DNA from: a virus
Direction: 5' to 3' (one strand)
IMG/VR virus record: IMGVR_UViG_3300049491_000850
Coordinates: 31,516-95,515 of that record
DNA: 64,000 bases
Both the position numbers and the translations under genes were made by a program. Shown piece by piece: positions 49,161-54,544 of the stretch. Under the pieces are notes generated by a model. That model was not told the DNA's origin, ran no database searches, and was given only the letters and a program-made list of their open reading frames with translations. The first letter of the stretch is position 1. Every line of letters starts with the position of its first letter.

Positions 49161-50870
49161 ATGAAACTCACTTGGTTAAAAGAGGATCAAAGAGAATTTT
49201 TAGAAAGAGGCTATTTGGAAAACGGTGAAACACCGGAGGACAGATATAAAGAACTCTGCAATACAATTGAAACGTATTGTCTTAAATTATCACAAACAGT
49301 TGAATCGATTGAATACTGTAAAGGTATTGGAAAACGTTTTGAAGAATACATTGCAAAAGGATGGTGTTCATTTGCAACTCCTGTATTAATTAATTTTGGT
49401 AAGAAAGAAAATCTTGCGATCTCATGTAATAAGAGTATTCTTAGTGATTCGCTTGATGATATTTACAAAGGTATCCATGAATTAGGTATGTTGGCAAAGT
49501 ATGGTGCGGGAACGTCACAGAACTTTTCTAATTTAAGACCAATGGGTTCTGATATATCAACTGGTGGTCAATCGAACACGATTCTTGATTGGGTTGAACT
49601 GTATGCCGATATGATGTCTAAAACATCACAGAATAGAGCAAGACGTGGTTTCTTAACTGCATATCTATCTGTTGATCATCCTGAGATCATGGATTTCTTG
49701 GACATTGGTACGCATAGAGTGCCAGCAGATAAGCAACGTTTCTTCCAAACCATTACAACGGCAGTTACACTTCCTGTTGGTTGGAGAAAATCTTTGAAAG
49801 AAGGTGATAAAGAGAAGCGTACTATTTGGGGCAAGATTTTGAAGACAAGAAAAGAAGTAGGATTTCCTTACATTATTGATCTTGAAAATTCAAACGAAGC
49901 AAGACCTCAAGTCTACAAAGACAAAGGCATGGAAATTAAAACATCGAACATCTGTACCGAGATCATCGAGTACTGTGACGATAAAAAAACATTTGCATGT
50001 TGCCTTTCATCTTTGGTTGCATACTATTTCGATGAATGGGAGAATCATCCTAACTTCATTTTCGATATGAACTTGTTGTTGGATTGTGTTATCGAAGAAT
50101 ACATCGAGAAAGGAAAGAAAATGGCTGGTATGGCAAAAGCAGTTAAGTTTGCAGAAGAACATAGAGCCATTGGGTTAGGTGTACTTGCATTCCACTCTTA
50201 TTTACAGAAGAAAGGTATTGTCTTCGGTGAACTTGCATCGTTCTCTGTTAATCAGAGAATGTTTGGAAAGCTAAGAAGCGAATCTGATCGTGCATCTAAG
50301 TGGATGGCAGAGCATTTTGGTGAACCAGAAATTTTGAAAGGATACGGTTTGAGAAATACTACTCGTATTGCGCAAGCACCAACAAAATCTACGTCATATA
50401 TAATGGGTGGTATTGCGTTGAACTTCTCAGAAGGAGTTGAACCACATAAATCAAACTACACTTCAAAGAAATTGGCGAAAATTCAATCAGAGGTGAAGAA
50501 CAAGGAACTTATCGATTTGTTGGAATCAAAAGGTAAGAATAAAAAAGATGTGTGGGAAACTATTCTCGTTCACAACGGATCGGTACAGCATCTTGATTTC
50601 TTAAATGAAAGAGAAAAGGCTATTTTTAGAACTTTCTCTGAAATTTCACAAGTTGACGTGATTAAACTTGCTGGTCAAAGACAAAAATTCATTGACCAAG
50701 GGCAATCGATCAATATCATGATCCACCCGGATACACCTGCAAATGAGATAAATAAGCTACATTTGCTGGCATTTGACGAAGGTCTGAAATCATTGTACTA
50801 TCAATATTCAATTAATGCTGCACAGGAATTTAACAAGGAATTGTTAACTTGCTCAAGTTGCGAAGCATAA
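49161..50870 (+). CDS. nrdA: Ribonucleotide reductase, large (catalytic) subunit, 569 aa
   Basis: Class I enzyme reducing NDPs to dNDPs. Catalytic residues: Cys89 (AISCNKS), Asn263/Cys265/Glu267 (SNICTEI), Cys280 or 281 (FACCLSS), the Tyr pair in SLYYQYS near the end, and C-terminal Cys564/Cys567 (CSSCEA) for re-reduction. The N-terminal ATP cone is absent, so overall activity control by ATP/dATP is probably lost, as in many phage enzymes. Compact against 761 aa in E. coli. Ends at a terminator at 50903. Confidence 0.95.
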   Translation: MKLTWLKEDQREFLERGYLENGETPEDRYKELCNTIETYCLKLSQTVESIEYCKGIGKRFEEYIAKGWCSFATPVLINFGKKENLAISCNKSILSDSLDDIYKGIHELGMLAKYGAGTSQNFSNLRPMGSDISTGGQSNTILDWVELYADMMSKTSQNRARRGFLTAYLSVDHPEIMDFLDIGTHRVPADKQRFFQTITTAVTLPVGWRKSLKEGDKEKRTIWGKILKTRKEVGFPYIIDLENSNEARPQVYKDKGMEIKTSNICTEIIEYCDDKKTFACCLSSLVAYYFDEWENHPNFIFDMNLLLDCVIEEYIEKGKKMAGMAKAVKFAEEHRAIGLGVLAFHSYLQKKGIVFGELASFSVNQRMFGKLRSESDRASKWMAEHFGEPEILKGYGLRNTTRIAQAPTKSTSYIMGGIALNFSEGVEPHKSNYTSKKLAKIQSEVKNKELIDLLESKGKNKKDVWETILVHNGSVQHLDFLNEREKAIFRTFSEISQVDVIKLAGQRQKFIDQGQSINIMIHPDTPANEINKLHLLAFDEGLKSLYYQYSINAAQEFNKELLTCSSCEA

Positions 50871-51052: not shown

Positions 51053-51082
51053 TTGACAAAGAGAAAACTATTTGTACCTTTG
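51053..51082 (+). promoter_or_regulatory. Strong Bacteroidota-type promoter of the ornate RNA
   Basis: TTGAC (TTG at 51053-51055) and TACCTTTG (51075-51082) fit the Bacteroidota -33 TTG and -7 TAnnTTTG boxes with a 19-base spacer. It is the best match to that consensus I found in the window. Transcription should begin near 51089. Confidence 0.75.
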
Positions 51083-51088
51083 TCTTCC

Positions 51089-52055
51089 CGTCACAGAATA
51101 CCGAGACGGAAAACAGACGTTCTTTAAAATATTAAAAAAATATGGGCTGCTTGAAGTCCATTAAAAGATAAAACCAGTAATGGTGATAAAGGGGGTGTGG
51201 TATAAACGCCATGTTCTCGATCTCCTTCCGCAAGGAAGTGGATACAATCAAGCAAGCATTGCAGTTGGATTTTTTATAGTGAGGGGCTTACGTCTGTAGC
51301 TATGGAGGGTTCGAGTTCCATCAACGGGGTGGAAATAAGTATGGAAACATATGATTGTAAAATGCAGGTTATTTGTGCACCTCCGGGTGTGCGAATCATG
51401 TCGGTCTGAAATCTCGCAAGGACGTAAGGCTGAGACCAGTTATTTCACTGACTTTCTCATAAAACGAATGGTTGGGGTGATGATGGTGACCGCAAGTCAC
51501 AGAGAGTTGTTTGGTATTGGCTATCCAAAAGATAGTTAGCCGAGTCTCAGCCACAACTTTCAGAAGTCCGAAAATATACTTCAAACGTATATCCCTTTTA
51601 AGGATACAACAACTTGTAAAAAAGAGCAAGTGCTGAGACGATTAGACAGAAAGTCGCATACTACCGTTGCAATATACGGTAATGGTCACCTCTCAAGGGT
51701 GGTCAGTTGATAGGACTTGTTGCGGTGGGGAGGCATCCTCGTTGTAGCGATGGACTAACTGAAAATGTCTGGTCGAAACGAATGGTTTCCGAACCGTAAG
51801 GGGAAGGAACTTGCGATTGTAGTGTACTTGCCGAAAGGTGAGTGGATAAGAAGAGAACCGAAAGGATAATGCTTCGAAAGTGCTACTGGAATGCTGTAAT
51901 CTCAGGCGTTTATCTTTCACACCATGTTGAGGAATCGATGGGGTGTTGAGAGAGAACTTCGATGATGAATCGAAGAATATGGGGATGTAGTTTAACTTTT
52001 AAAACACACGACTTCGGGTTGTGTGATGGGGGTGAAAATCCCTCCAACCCCACTT
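51089..52055 (+). ncRNA. Large ornate structured RNA (about 0.97 kb), GOLLD/ROOL-like in kind
   Basis: There is no credible reading frame, but stems are dense. Examples: a 5' hairpin CCGTC/GACGG near 51089-51110; CTTCC-GCAA-GGAAG (51225-51238); GTATG-GAAA-CATAT (51339-51352); CTATC-CAAAA-GATAG near 51522-51536; CTTGCC-GAAA-GGTGAG (51827-51842); CTTCGAT-GATGA-ATCGAAG (51957-51975). GNRA tetraloops recur. GGCTGAGAC (51428-51436) is complementary to GTCTCAGCC (51544-51552). The DNA is visibly more G-rich than its surroundings and follows a strong promoter. A tRNA-like cloverleaf ends it. The 3' end is uncertain. Giant phage RNAs (GOLLD, ROOL) share this style and often lie near tRNA genes; membership is untested. 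Confidence 0.75.
51981..52052 (+). tRNA. tRNA-like cloverleaf, anticodon position TCG (degenerate)
   Basis: Acceptor GGGGATG/CAACCCC has one A-A mismatch at position 5; the D stem is GTTT/AAAC, the anticodon stem CACGA/TTGTG with loop CTTCGGG (anticodon TCG at 52014-52016, Arg type), the variable loop has four bases, and the T stem is GGGGG/CCCTC. The discriminator is A at 52052; no CCA is encoded. The D loop lacks GG and the T loop reads TGAAAAT in place of TTCRANY, so normal D-loop/T-loop contacts are missing. It may be a structural tRNA mimic within the larger RNA rather than a working tRNA. Confidence 0.5.
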
Positions 52056-52057
52056 AA

Positions 52058-52360
52058 CTGGCTATTTATCGGGTTACTTCAAACTTTCTTTATACGAAAA
52101 CTTAACCACCTGATTATGCTTTCCAGTTTTTATTTTAAGATAGACGATCTTAAAAAACAACATTAAAGATATTGTGGCTACAGTGTAAGTTACTTCTCGC
52201 TCTTCGGAGCAACAAAATGGTAATTTGAACAAACACTAACACTAATTTCCACAACCTCATTTCTGGCTATTGATTCAGTTACTTCTACAATTTACAATTT
52301 AAATGTTCAACCACTGACTCGCGTTTCCAGAATTTTTTTATTAAAACCATTCTGATTTTA
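52058..52360 (+). repeat. Two degenerate copies of a ~95-base non-coding unit
   Basis: CTGGCTATTTATCGGGTTAC (from 52058) and CTGGCTATTGATTCAGTTAC (from 52263) begin two copies. Each continues through ACTTC, then about 25-30 bases later AACCAC and CTTTCCAG/GTTTCCAG, and a T-rich stretch ending in TTTTAA. The copies flank a UUCG hairpin GCTC-TTCG-GAGC (52199-52210). This stretch, 52056-52381, has no gene; it is the leader or control region of the 720-aa protein gene. Confidence 0.5.
52063..52070 (+). promoter_or_regulatory. Possible late promoter box TATTTATC
   Basis: Located in the first repeat unit just after the tRNA-like element. It could drive the 720-aa gene with a leader of about 300 bases; the second unit has TATTGAT at the same place and is probably inactive. 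Confidence 0.3.
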
Positions 52361-52381: not shown

Positions 52382-54544
52382 ATGAAAACAAAAACCCTAT
52401 CTCCAATCACTGCGGCAGAGACTGTCTTTACGAAGGCACAGATCGCATTCCAAAGAGGCTTCCTTTTGGGAACACCAAACAAGCCCATCGGTAAATTGCT
52501 GACCAAGCAAGAGAAATTTAGCATCCAAGCAGAATTAATGCAGTTCGGATACATTCTATCCGAAGAAGCACTTGTCGTTGTAACCATTGACTGGTTCAAA
52601 GATGTAATTCCTTTCTTGAGAAAGAATTTAGGTGTAGGCGACTACACACCATTCTATAAGAACTTCCCACAACAAGTGATGGAACTTAGCCATGCTGAGT
52701 TGTATTGGAATGCAATCATCCATTACTGGTCAAGTGGTACTTGGGAACCAACTTATCTGTTGAAAGAAAGAGGCTTTGCCTTTGAAAACACTAAGTTCAC
52801 AACTATCAAGTTGGGAACCGAAGAGGATTTCCAAAAAATCTTTACAAATCTTGTATCGATCAATCAGTCTATCACTGAAAACGATAAGTCTATAATCGAA
52901 TGGTTCATCCAGAACTATGCGCAAGGTATTGTCATGCCTAAAGTTGTTCCTTTCAAGGAAACACTTTGTATGCTTGCCGGACACGGCTTACCAGTTCCTG
53001 TACAAACAGCAACTGACGTATTGAGAATAGCAACCTATTTCTCAGGTGGTGATATTTCATTGCCAGCAGTACCGAAAGTTACTATTGACGAAGTTAAGGA
53101 AAATAGAAAGGCAACTTTCTTCCGTAACTTGAGAGATTCACAAATCGAAGCAAGAGATAAGTTTAAGTTCAAGAACTTGCCTAGAGCAAGAAGAAAGTAT
53201 TTGCTTTCATTGCTTGAATCGATCAATATTGATCTCGGTGAAATGAAGTTGAAACTCGAAAGATGGTTACGTCTTGGAGAAGTACTTCACGTAGGTGAAT
53301 ATAAGACTCGTTTTCCTAAAGCGTATCAAGCATTCAACGTGCTTAGAAATGACGTGCAATCAGTACAGACTTTCGAGTCTAAAATTGATGCTGCATTTCA
53401 AAAGGTATTTGAAACTAACGATGATGAATCATTAGATTTCGCCTTGATGCTTCTTTCTAAGAGACCGGGTATTTTCGCGAGAAAATTAGACTGGTTATTG
53501 AGAAATTTCGAGAATTCTGCCGTGCTAGAAACCTTCAAGAAAATCTCTATGAAGGTGAGTAAGAAAGTATTGTGGGAACTTTACAATCACTTCTTAAACC
53601 GTGATACAACCAACGCAAGATCGGTTATGATCAAGGGTAAGAAGTCAATAAAGAGAACTCTTCCAGAGTTACCTCCAATGAATAAGGTTTTGATCAATAA
53701 GATTCAAAACGTGATCTTATCGTGCATCGCTGAACACTTTAGCCAACTTGAAAAACTTGGTGATGTGTGGATTGATGAACAGTTGAAGAACATTCCTCTT
53801 CCTTCTGGAATGAGAAGTGTGAACACGGCAGTGAAGACTTACGTGAGAGGAACTAGAATTCCGTTCAACGCAGATGCTAAGGTTGTGAGACCTTATATCC
53901 ACTGGTTCGATCAACATGGAGATGAAGATTTGGATTTGAGTGTAGGATTCTACAATGCAAATTTGAAGGGTGTTGAACACATCTCATATACTAATCTTAG
54001 AAGTCAAAGATTGAACTCGGTTCACTCTGGTGATGTAAGACGTAGAGCAGGTGCGTGTGCTGAATACGTTGATATTGACATCGCTGCTTGTGCAAAGAAC
54101 GGTGTTAGATATGCAATGGTTCAAGTGCATAACTTCCAAAATAGACCAATGCATACAATGAAAGATTGTGTGTTCGGTTTGATGGAAAGAGAATTCCCGG
54201 AAGCAAACAGTATCTTCGTACCGAAGACAATCACTAATGCAGTTAAGGTAGCGAACGAAAGTTCAACCGTCTGCATCGTGCTCTTGGATTTAGTTGAGAG
54301 AAACTATATTTGGGTTGATTGTGAACTTGAATCGAGAGAGTTGGCTAACCTTGAAAGCACTTCAAATATGACCGCTCAATTGATCAAGGGATTGATTAAC
54401 AACTCACATTTGTCAGTGTATGATTTATTGTATCTTCATGCCGAAAGCAGAGGAACAATAGTTAGAAATAAGGAATTTGCTCAGACCGTGTTCGAGTATG
54501 ATGACTTCGTAACAAGCTACGAAAAGGCTGCAACCTTTATGTAA
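52382..54544 (+). CDS. MXAN_6230/SCO0854-like protein with TerD-like C-terminal domain, 720 aa
   Basis: The layout follows the bacterial MXAN_6230/SCO0854 family. Seen: YTPFYKNFPQQV (88-99), RPGIFARKLDWLLR (361-374), DVWIDEQLKNIPLPSGMRSV (461-480), VKTYVRGTRIPF (484-495), then a TerD-like region with VRPYIHWFDQHGDEDLDLSV (502-521), HISYTNLRSQR, VHSGDVRRRAGACAEYVDID (547-566) and GVRYAMVQVHNFQN (574-587). Bacterial members are placed in TerD/vWA-type stress or conflict systems and carry a RING-type Cys cluster, which is missing here. Function is unknown. It is a lone gene directly downstream of the ornate RNA; a common function is an inference. Confidence 0.65.
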   Translation: MKTKTLSPITAAETVFTKAQIAFQRGFLLGTPNKPIGKLLTKQEKFSIQAELMQFGYILSEEALVVVTIDWFKDVIPFLRKNLGVGDYTPFYKNFPQQVMELSHAELYWNAIIHYWSSGTWEPTYLLKERGFAFENTKFTTIKLGTEEDFQKIFTNLVSINQSITENDKSIIEWFIQNYAQGIVMPKVVPFKETLCMLAGHGLPVPVQTATDVLRIATYFSGGDISLPAVPKVTIDEVKENRKATFFRNLRDSQIEARDKFKFKNLPRARRKYLLSLLESINIDLGEMKLKLERWLRLGEVLHVGEYKTRFPKAYQAFNVLRNDVQSVQTFESKIDAAFQKVFETNDDESLDFALMLLSKRPGIFARKLDWLLRNFENSAVLETFKKISMKVSKKVLWELYNHFLNRDTTNARSVMIKGKKSIKRTLPELPPMNKVLINKIQNVILSCIAEHFSQLEKLGDVWIDEQLKNIPLPSGMRSVNTAVKTYVRGTRIPFNADAKVVRPYIHWFDQHGDEDLDLSVGFYNANLKGVEHISYTNLRSQRLNSVHSGDVRRRAGACAEYVDIDIAACAKNGVRYAMVQVHNFQNRPMHTMKDCVFGLMEREFPEANSIFVPKTITNAVKVANESSTVCIVLLDLVERNYIWVDCELESRELANLESTSNMTAQLIKGLINNSHLSVYDLLYLHAESRGTIVRNKEFAQTVFEYDDFVTSYEKAATFM

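What the first reader, a model, noticed from the sequence alone, without database searches (positions are those of the whole stretch)
51053..52055. Large ornate non-coding RNA with its own strong host-type promoter
About 1 kb without a credible gene holds many stems, recurrent GNRA tetraloops, long-range complementary segments and a terminal tRNA-like fold, and starts right after the best Bacteroidota promoter in the window. Known giant phage RNAs (GOLLD, ROOL, and also OLE and HEARO among ornate RNAs) have this style; GOLLD and ROOL are phage-linked and often near tRNAs. I recognise no conserved core of any of them, so a new class or a divergent member is possible.
Basis: partly seen in the sequence, partly recalled or inferred. 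Interest (0 to 1): 0.92.

Follow-up and report, generated by a model that had tools for sequence, protein, structure and literature searches.

The report
GOLLD RNA beside new sRNA–protein pair
The 1-kb gene-free stretch is a phage copy of GOLLD, a known giant RNA that builds hollow RNA cages, but directly after it lies something found in no catalogue searched: a widespread family of small hairpin RNAs that travels with one particular protein in phages and in many bacteria.

Summary
Window 51502-51908 matches Rfam GOLLD end to end (156.2 bits, cut-off 150, E 7e-42). The 5' half carries the conserved 5'-domain hairpin of GOLLD, and a sister phage (L001) has the same RNA at the same place with 13 compensatory pair changes. 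The "terminal tRNA-like fold" is real but odd: the D- and T-loop letters that join the tRNA elbow are missing in both phages, whereas 16 of 17 tRNAs beside other GOLLDs are canonical.

The real surprise lies just downstream (52056-52332). Three ~70-nt hairpins precede a 720-aa gene (helical repeats plus a TerD fold). A covariance model trained on phage copies hit beside that gene in 27 of 27 bacterial loci picked by protein alone. RNA-first hits in 7 new actinomycete genomes all sat beside the gene (9 of 9 places). In 81 Paenibacillus genomes RNA and protein co-occur (21 both, 58 neither, 1 and 1). Pairing covaries strongly. Stand-alone copies occur. No Rfam family and no paper found here describes it.

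GOLLD: new member of a known kind. Hairpin RNA plus TerD protein: probably a new ribonucleoprotein family.

The parts
51053..51082 (+). Bacteroidota-type promoter (TTGAC ... TACCTTTG); start of transcription expected near 51089
   Evidence: Only TTGAC form in the window; identical arrangement at the orthologous place in L001. Sequence inference, no transcript data.
51089..51501 (+). GOLLD 5' domain (cap domain of the known cage)
   Evidence: Between the promoter and the Rfam core; aligns with L001 and carries the conserved 5' hairpin of GOLLDs. Not covered by the Rfam model, so outer limits are inferred.
51167..51191 (+). Conserved 5'-domain hairpin GATAAAA-CCA-GTAA-TGG-TGATAAAG
   Evidence: Identical 25-mer in L001, L203 and L204, two of which (L203, L204) are very distant GOLLDs; the other IMG/VR GOLLDs have the counterpart ..ATAAAC-stem-GAAA-stem-GATAAAG about 690-790 nt before the GTGGATAAGA motif (675 nt here).
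51502..51908 (+). GOLLD 3' domain (Rfam RF02032, full model 1-416)
   Evidence: 156.2 bits, cut-off 150, E 7.3e-42; 78 of 85 scorable model pairs are standard; against L001 13 pairs changed on both sides, 7 on one side, 55 same, 8 broken in one or both.
51565..51625 (+). Variable linker of GOLLD (the disordered loop inside the cage in the cryo-EM structure); limits approximate
   Evidence: Unpaired stretch of the Rfam consensus with low posterior probability, A/T-rich; no tRNA inside it here.
51981..52053 (+). tRNA-like fold (ARAGORN: tRNA-Arg, anticodon tcg) with a non-canonical elbow: no GG in the D-loop, T-loop TGAAAAT
   Evidence: the L001 counterpart has T-loop TGTAAAT and ARAGORN does not call it a tRNA; tRNAs near other GOLLDs have a canonical T-loop in 16 of 17.
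52056..52128 (+). Hairpin RNA element 1 (unnamed family, model R1)
   Evidence: 44.5 bits, E 8.6e-9; one of the sequences the model was built from
52172..52254 (+). Hairpin RNA element 2
   Evidence: 51.8 bits; in the training set
52261..52332 (+). Hairpin RNA element 3
   Evidence: 53.9 bits; these three are the only copies in the 95.5-kb record
52382..54544 (+). 720-aa protein: N-terminal helical repeats plus C-terminal TerD fold, distant relative of the MXAN_6230/SCO0854 family
   Evidence: phrog_33734 E 5e-71; NF041916 250.8 bits, below its cut-off of 600; AF2 pLDDT 80.9; Foldseek to TerD structures 3ibz, 2kxt, 2qz7, E 1e-5 to 2e-4

Best explanation
Window 51089 to about 51960 encodes a GOLLD RNA of a Bacteroidota-type tailed phage, transcribed from its own host-type promoter and followed at its 3' end by a tRNA-like fold with a degenerate elbow. 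Like its solved relative it most likely folds into a 5' cap domain and a 3' ring domain and assembles with copies of itself into a hollow RNA-only cage with the linker inside (shown for another GOLLD by cryo-EM, PMC12286853; inferred here). Its use to the phage is unknown in the literature; my best guess is storage or sequestration of translation parts late in infection (about 30% likely, inference). Independently of GOLLD, the next 300 nt hold three copies of a small hairpin RNA that is the partner of the 720-aa helical-repeat/TerD protein encoded right after them: an RNA-protein pair found in many phages and bacteria. The likely mode of action is that the protein binds the hairpins through their conserved internal loops (GGCUA / UUCCUUCUA / AACUAG / UUUCC) and forms a stable ribonucleoprotein. 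Shown: structure conservation, linkage, co-occurrence. Inferred: binding and function. The confidence given is for the GOLLD identity; for the RNA-protein partnership see the section on the most novel reading.
For: GOLLD: full-length Rfam match over cut-off; orthologue in L001 at the same locus, 166.2 bits with 13 compensatory changes; conserved 5' hairpin; fold z -3.7. Hairpin RNA: covariation score 0.766 against 0.222 +/- 0.024 shuffled and at most 0.225 when slid; 27/27 held-out bacterial loci hit beside the gene, 59 of 60 matches on the gene's strand; covariation in that set 0.935 against 0.189 (alignment fitted to the model); 13 of 13 hits in 10 whole genomes (~61 Mb) lie in the locus; RNA-first hits in 7 new actinomycete genomes beside the gene at 9 of 9 places; Paenibacillus both 21, neither 58, one each way, Fisher p 3.5e-17; control of 724 kb without the protein: no hit below E 0.2; not in Rfam.
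Against: GOLLD: the score is only 6 bits over the cut-off, and one middle part of the 3' domain fits poorly (mismatched pairs, low posterior). No transcript or cage data for this phage. Hairpin RNA: no binding data; upstream copies end a few nt before the start codon in Paenibacillus, so control of the mRNA cannot be excluded as part of the function; co-occurrence within one genus is not phylogenetically independent; Weasels2 has only weak matches beside the gene (18.7 bits) and SCTP-2 has none there. A functional tie between GOLLD and the pair is not shown: none of the 119 GOLLD loci fetched by pattern carries the protein.
Confidence: 0.93

Rival explanations
1. A new class of ornate phage RNA, not GOLLD.
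For: 5' half not covered by Rfam; sequence very divergent, no blastn match in 50,697 phage records.
Against: Full-length Rfam match over cut-off, homologous 5' hairpin at the expected distance, covarying orthologue.
Confidence: 0.03
2. The hairpins 52056-52332 are only a leader that controls the 720-aa gene in cis (autoregulation by the protein), not separate small RNAs.
For: In the window, L001 and most loci they lie just upstream of the gene, in several Paenibacillus 8-11 nt before the start codon.
Against: In many loci they lie only downstream of the gene (L218-L223, L226, L237, L251, L252, L256, L269, L271) or on both sides. Stand-alone copies lie tens of kb away, two with a sigma-70-like promoter ending 8-9 nt before the element (SCTP-2, L290; L289), in SCTP-2 followed by CCCCTC-AAAT-GAGGGG-T6. 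Caveat: the promoter scan also finds about 2 sites per shuffled SCTP-2 stretch, although the 11-of-12 match is strong.
Confidence: 0.2
3. The tRNA-like fold at 51981-52053 is a working tRNA-Arg that decodes CGA codons for the phage.
For: ARAGORN and Rfam score it as tRNA; GOLLDs are often followed by a tRNA.
Against: D-loop lacks GG and T-loop is TGAAAAT; the L001 counterpart shares the T-loop change (TGTAAAT), has another, irregular anticodon loop and is not called. Canonical T-loop at 16 of 17 other GOLLD-side tRNAs.
Confidence: 0.3
4. GOLLD and the hairpin/TerD pair form one functional unit, for example the protein acting on or inside the GOLLD cage.
For: Adjacent in the window and L001; GOLLD 2.2 kb downstream of the gene in L218 (315.7 bits) and about 4 kb upstream in L225 (127.9 bits) within records of 310 and 379 kb.
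Against: XacN1 has both far apart; most records with the protein show no GOLLD and the 119 pattern-fetched GOLLD loci show no protein. Both kinds sit in tRNA-rich regions, which alone can bring them together.
Confidence: 0.15

Closest known systems
GOLLD RNA (RF02032; cryo-EM structure PMC12286853)
   Same: 3' domain over cut-off along the whole model, 5' domain with the conserved GNRA hairpin, length, phage origin, tRNA-type element at the end
   Different: Low score (156 against 150); GTAA instead of GAAA in the 5' hairpin; the neighbouring tRNA-like fold has a degenerate elbow
ROOL RNA
   Same: Size, phage origin, tRNA neighbourhood
   Different: No Rfam ROOL match at E up to 1
Ro60/Rsr protein with Y RNAs (YrlA)
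   Same: What the hairpin/TerD pair may work like: one protein with helical repeats, one or several small hairpin RNAs encoded beside it, in phages and bacteria, sometimes near RtcB (Weasels2) or tRNA nucleotidyltransferase
   Different: No TROVE match in Pfam or among significant Foldseek hits; hairpins match no Rfam family. Not a member.
MXAN_6230/SCO0854 family (NF041916)
   Same: All 17 aligned relatives match this model, the window protein over residues 136-702
   Different: Window protein scores 250.8 against a cut-off of 600 and does not cover the ends of the model; no paper on that family was found

Membership tests
GOLLD RNA (RF02032) | Covariance-model match of the 3' domain at or above the curated cut-off | tested here: met
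   156.2 bits against 150, positions 1-416
GOLLD RNA (RF02032) | Consensus pairs kept by compensatory change in a relative | tested here: met
   13 both-side and 7 one-side changes, 8 broken in one or both, against L001
GOLLD RNA (RF02032) | A 5' domain of about 400 nt with conserved GNRA hairpin | tested here: met
   Hairpin at 51167-51191, 675 nt before GTGGATAAGA; others 690-790. Full 5' structure not modelled.
GOLLD RNA (RF02032) | Phage or prophage location, often near tRNAs | tested here: met
   Virus record of 95,515 bases; tRNA-like fold 73 nt downstream
GOLLD RNA (RF02032) | Assembles into a homo-14-mer cage | not testable with these tools
   Needs cryo-EM or mass photometry
tRNA | Cloverleaf found by tRNA models | tested here: met
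   Rfam 52 bits; ARAGORN tRNA-Arg
tRNA | Elbow letters: GG in the D-loop and T-loop TTCRANY | tested here: not met
   D-loop without GG, T-loop TGAAAAT; L001 TGTAAAT
Ro60 (TROVE) / Y RNA | TROVE domain in the protein | tested here: not met
   No Pfam match; Foldseek finds TerD, not Ro60, at E below 0.001
Ro60 (TROVE) / Y RNA | RNA matches a Y RNA family | tested here: not met
   No Rfam match to the elements
TerD fold | TerD beta-sandwich | tested here: met
   Foldseek 3ibz E 9.5e-6, 2kxt 1.4e-4, 2qz7 1.6e-4; Pfam TerD itself does not match
MXAN_6230/SCO0854 RING family (NF041916) | Score above the curated cut-off | tested here: not met
   250.8 against 600 bits

The most novel reading that the evidence does not exclude
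The three hairpins after GOLLD belong to an undescribed, widespread small-RNA family that forms a ribonucleoprotein with helical-repeat/TerD proteins in phages and in at least six bacterial phyla: another kind of 'protein plus its own small RNAs' system besides Ro60/Y RNA.
Probability: 0.8. Interest if true: 0.88.

Novelty: new member of a known kind. Interest (0 to 1): 0.7.

Why it matters
GOLLD here adds a Bacteroidota-type lineage and a case of a tRNA-like 3' neighbour that has lost the canonical elbow, which bears on the open question of why these cages sit beside tRNAs. The larger gain is next to it: proteins of the TerD/SCO0854 kind are widespread, and no ligand or paper was found for this family here. 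A small RNA that goes with the gene across phages, Bacillota, Actinomycetota, Planctomycetota, Chloroflexota, Pseudomonadota and Bacteroidota names a candidate ligand and turns an open question (what do these proteins bind?) into a simple binding and pull-down experiment.

Tried and rejected
Nucleotide search of 50,697 phage records with the region: no match. Relatives chosen by ribonucleotide reductase mostly lack GOLLD in their records; absence in fragments proves little. L206 shares the 5' hairpin letters by chance inside a gene. Single-sequence AlphaFold model useless, pLDDT 40. TROVE/Ro idea for the protein rejected. The Pfam TerD model does not see the domain; only the fold does. Protein alignment A2 was too diverse for a collection scan. 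The ten neighbour genes checked in bacteria share no function across loci, so they give no hint. GOLLD as obligate partner of the protein rejected. Literature on SCO0854/MXAN_6230: none found; TerD with noncoding RNA: nothing relevant; subscription papers are not held, so a description elsewhere is possible. Two earlier GOLLD papers were not held.

Full report
1. Observation. The reported stretch lies between the ribonucleotide reductase large-subunit gene (49161-50870) and a 720-aa gene (52382-54544) of a virus record of 95,515 bases. It has no credible gene: the longest ORF is 77 aa and all frames hold many stops. It folds better than shuffles (z -3.7). The promoter-like TTGAC-N17-TACCTTTG at 51053-51082 is the only one of that form in the window and is conserved in place and spacing in the sister phage L001, although the looser form occurs about as often as chance gives.

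2. What the RNA is. Rfam gives GOLLD at 51502-51908, full model, 156.2 bits against a cut-off of 150, and a tRNA at 51981-52052. GOLLD occurs once in the record. L001, whose reductase is 91% identical, has GOLLD at the same place (166.2 bits). Reading both through the Rfam structure gives 13 pairs changed on both sides, 7 on one side, 55 unchanged and 8 broken in one or both (from the alignments). The 5' half is not in the Rfam model. It was tested by a conserved hairpin: the 25-mer GATAAAACCAGTAATGGTGATAAAG occurs in L001 and in two remote phages, L203 and L204, which on a lax scan prove to hold GOLLDs of 79 and 134 bits. Of 119 GOLLD loci drawn by a 3'-domain pattern, most with enough upstream sequence show the counterpart ATAAAC-stem-GAAA-stem-GATAAAG about 690-790 nt before the pattern; in the window the distance is 675. 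So both domains are GOLLD.

3. The tRNA-like fold. It starts 73 nt behind the Rfam core. Acceptor and anticodon stems change together between window and L001, but the D-loop has no GG and the T-loop reads TGAAAAT (window) and TGTAAAT (L001); ARAGORN calls only the window copy. The letters changed are those that join D- and T-loop in ordinary tRNAs (established knowledge of tRNA). tRNAs within 320 nt of the 3' motif of other GOLLDs have a canonical T-loop in 16 of 17. I take it as a tRNA remnant or mimic rather than a working tRNA (about 70%).

4. How GOLLD works. The cryo-EM study PMC12286853 shows that another GOLLD forms a hollow 14-mer of RNA alone, the 5' domain forming the cap and the 3' domain the ring, with the linker inside; its function is unknown, expression rises during lysis, and tRNAs are sometimes in the linker. 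The window RNA has the same two domains and linker, so the same assembly is the best inference; it was not tested.

5. What lies next to it. After the tRNA-like fold come three hairpins with the plan nnnnGGCTA - P2 - TTACTTCTA - loop - AAC.A - P2' - TTTCCnnnn (52056-52128, 52172-52254, 52261-52332), also three in L001. The following protein has remote relatives in large phages, several with many tRNAs, and hairpins of the same plan stand before many of those genes. An alignment of 27 gives a covariation score of 0.766 against 0.222 shuffled and at most 0.225 when partners are slid. A covariance model R1 was built.

6. Tests of the link. (a) Phage loci: hits beside the gene in all family loci except SCTP-2, weak in Weasels2; upstream in some, only downstream in others. 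(b) Held-out bacteria: 29 relatives were drawn by protein patterns alone; all 27 searched have hits (59 of 60 on the gene's strand), upstream (mostly 4-310 nt) or downstream (6-484 nt), 1-7 copies. (c) Whole genomes: 13 hits in ten genomes, all in the locus (in several genomes only the best 150 candidates were scored). (d) Reverse: of 148 genomes of the class of the Nocardioides relative, eight have hits; the nine places fetched in the seven new ones all sit next to a family gene on the same strand. (e) Co-occurrence in 81 genomes of one genus: both 21, neither 58, RNA alone 1, protein alone 1, and that one is a stop-broken remnant (Fisher p 3.5e-17, not corrected for kinship). (f) Control: 79 GOLLD loci, 724 kb, nothing below E 0.2. 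(g) Rfam: nothing.

7. Free-standing copies. Orphan elements lie about 18 kb (SCTP-2), 72 kb and 145 kb from the gene in three phages, with no family gene nearby. Two have a sigma-70-like promoter ending 8-9 nt before the element (11 and 10 of 12 consensus letters), and in SCTP-2 the sequence CCCCTC-AAAT-GAGGGG-TTTTTT follows. With the downstream positions this speaks for an RNA that acts as an RNA, not only as a leader.

8. The protein. No Pfam match; NF041916 (MXAN_6230/SCO0854) in all 17 aligned relatives, below cut-off in the window protein. AlphaFold with 17 sequences: pLDDT 80.9; Foldseek finds TerD for the C-terminal part and nothing significant for the helical part. It is not a TROVE/Ro60 protein by these tests.

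9. Mechanism of the pair (inferred). Conserved internal loops between two freely varying helices are what a protein site looks like; tandem copies beside the gene suggest several RNAs per protein or per particle. I expect a ribonucleoprotein, perhaps an RNA-handling platform like Ro60/Y RNA, given tRNA arrays, RtcB (Weasels2) and tRNA nucleotidyltransferase (RcXuper, RpAliso) nearby in some phages. About 35% for that specific role; about 80% for a real RNA-protein partnership.

10. GOLLD and the pair. They are neighbours in window and L001, within 2.2 and 4 kb in L218 and L225, but far apart in XacN1, and none of 119 other GOLLD loci carries the protein. Shared location in tRNA-rich regions may explain it.

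11. Verdict. At the given coordinates: a divergent GOLLD, a new member of a known kind (interest about 0.35 alone); the novelty section refers to this. Directly beside it: a small-RNA family with a protein partner that matches no known family searched (interest about 0.88 if binding is confirmed). The overall score weighs both.

Noticed in passing
window 52056-52332 and 52382-54544; loci L207-L242, L248-L290: Tandem small hairpin RNAs tied to a helical-repeat/TerD protein across phages and bacteria, absent from Rfam (see report).
   Followed up: yes
L203 7850-8632; L204 1150-2020: Very divergent GOLLDs below the Rfam cut-off (79 and 134 bits) that share the exact 25-mer 5' hairpin; L203 is followed by an array of 20 tRNAs.
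   Followed up: partly
L216, L217 (Xanthomonas phage XacN1 38570-38983 and 357365-357778): Two identically scoring GOLLD matches near either end of the record, probably in terminal repeats.
   Followed up: no
L211 2500-3720; L212 2210-3240: Rhodobacter and Ruegeria phages have a gene-free 1-kb stretch with repeated GGTGGTGCTT segments, between tRNAs and a tmRNA-like piece, before the TerD-type gene: possibly another large RNA.
   Followed up: no
L218 3657-3890: A tRNA-Leu-like gene appears to be split by an insert of some 150 nt.
   Followed up: no
G055 C5:114252-115041 and L287 (G060): One Paenibacillus genome with a broken remnant of the TerD-type gene and no hairpin RNA, another with one orphan hairpin and no gene: possible signs of joint loss.
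   Followed up: partly
L001 7990-8980: The sister phage has an extra lipoprotein-like ORF between the reductase gene and the GOLLD promoter, absent in the window.
   Followed up: no
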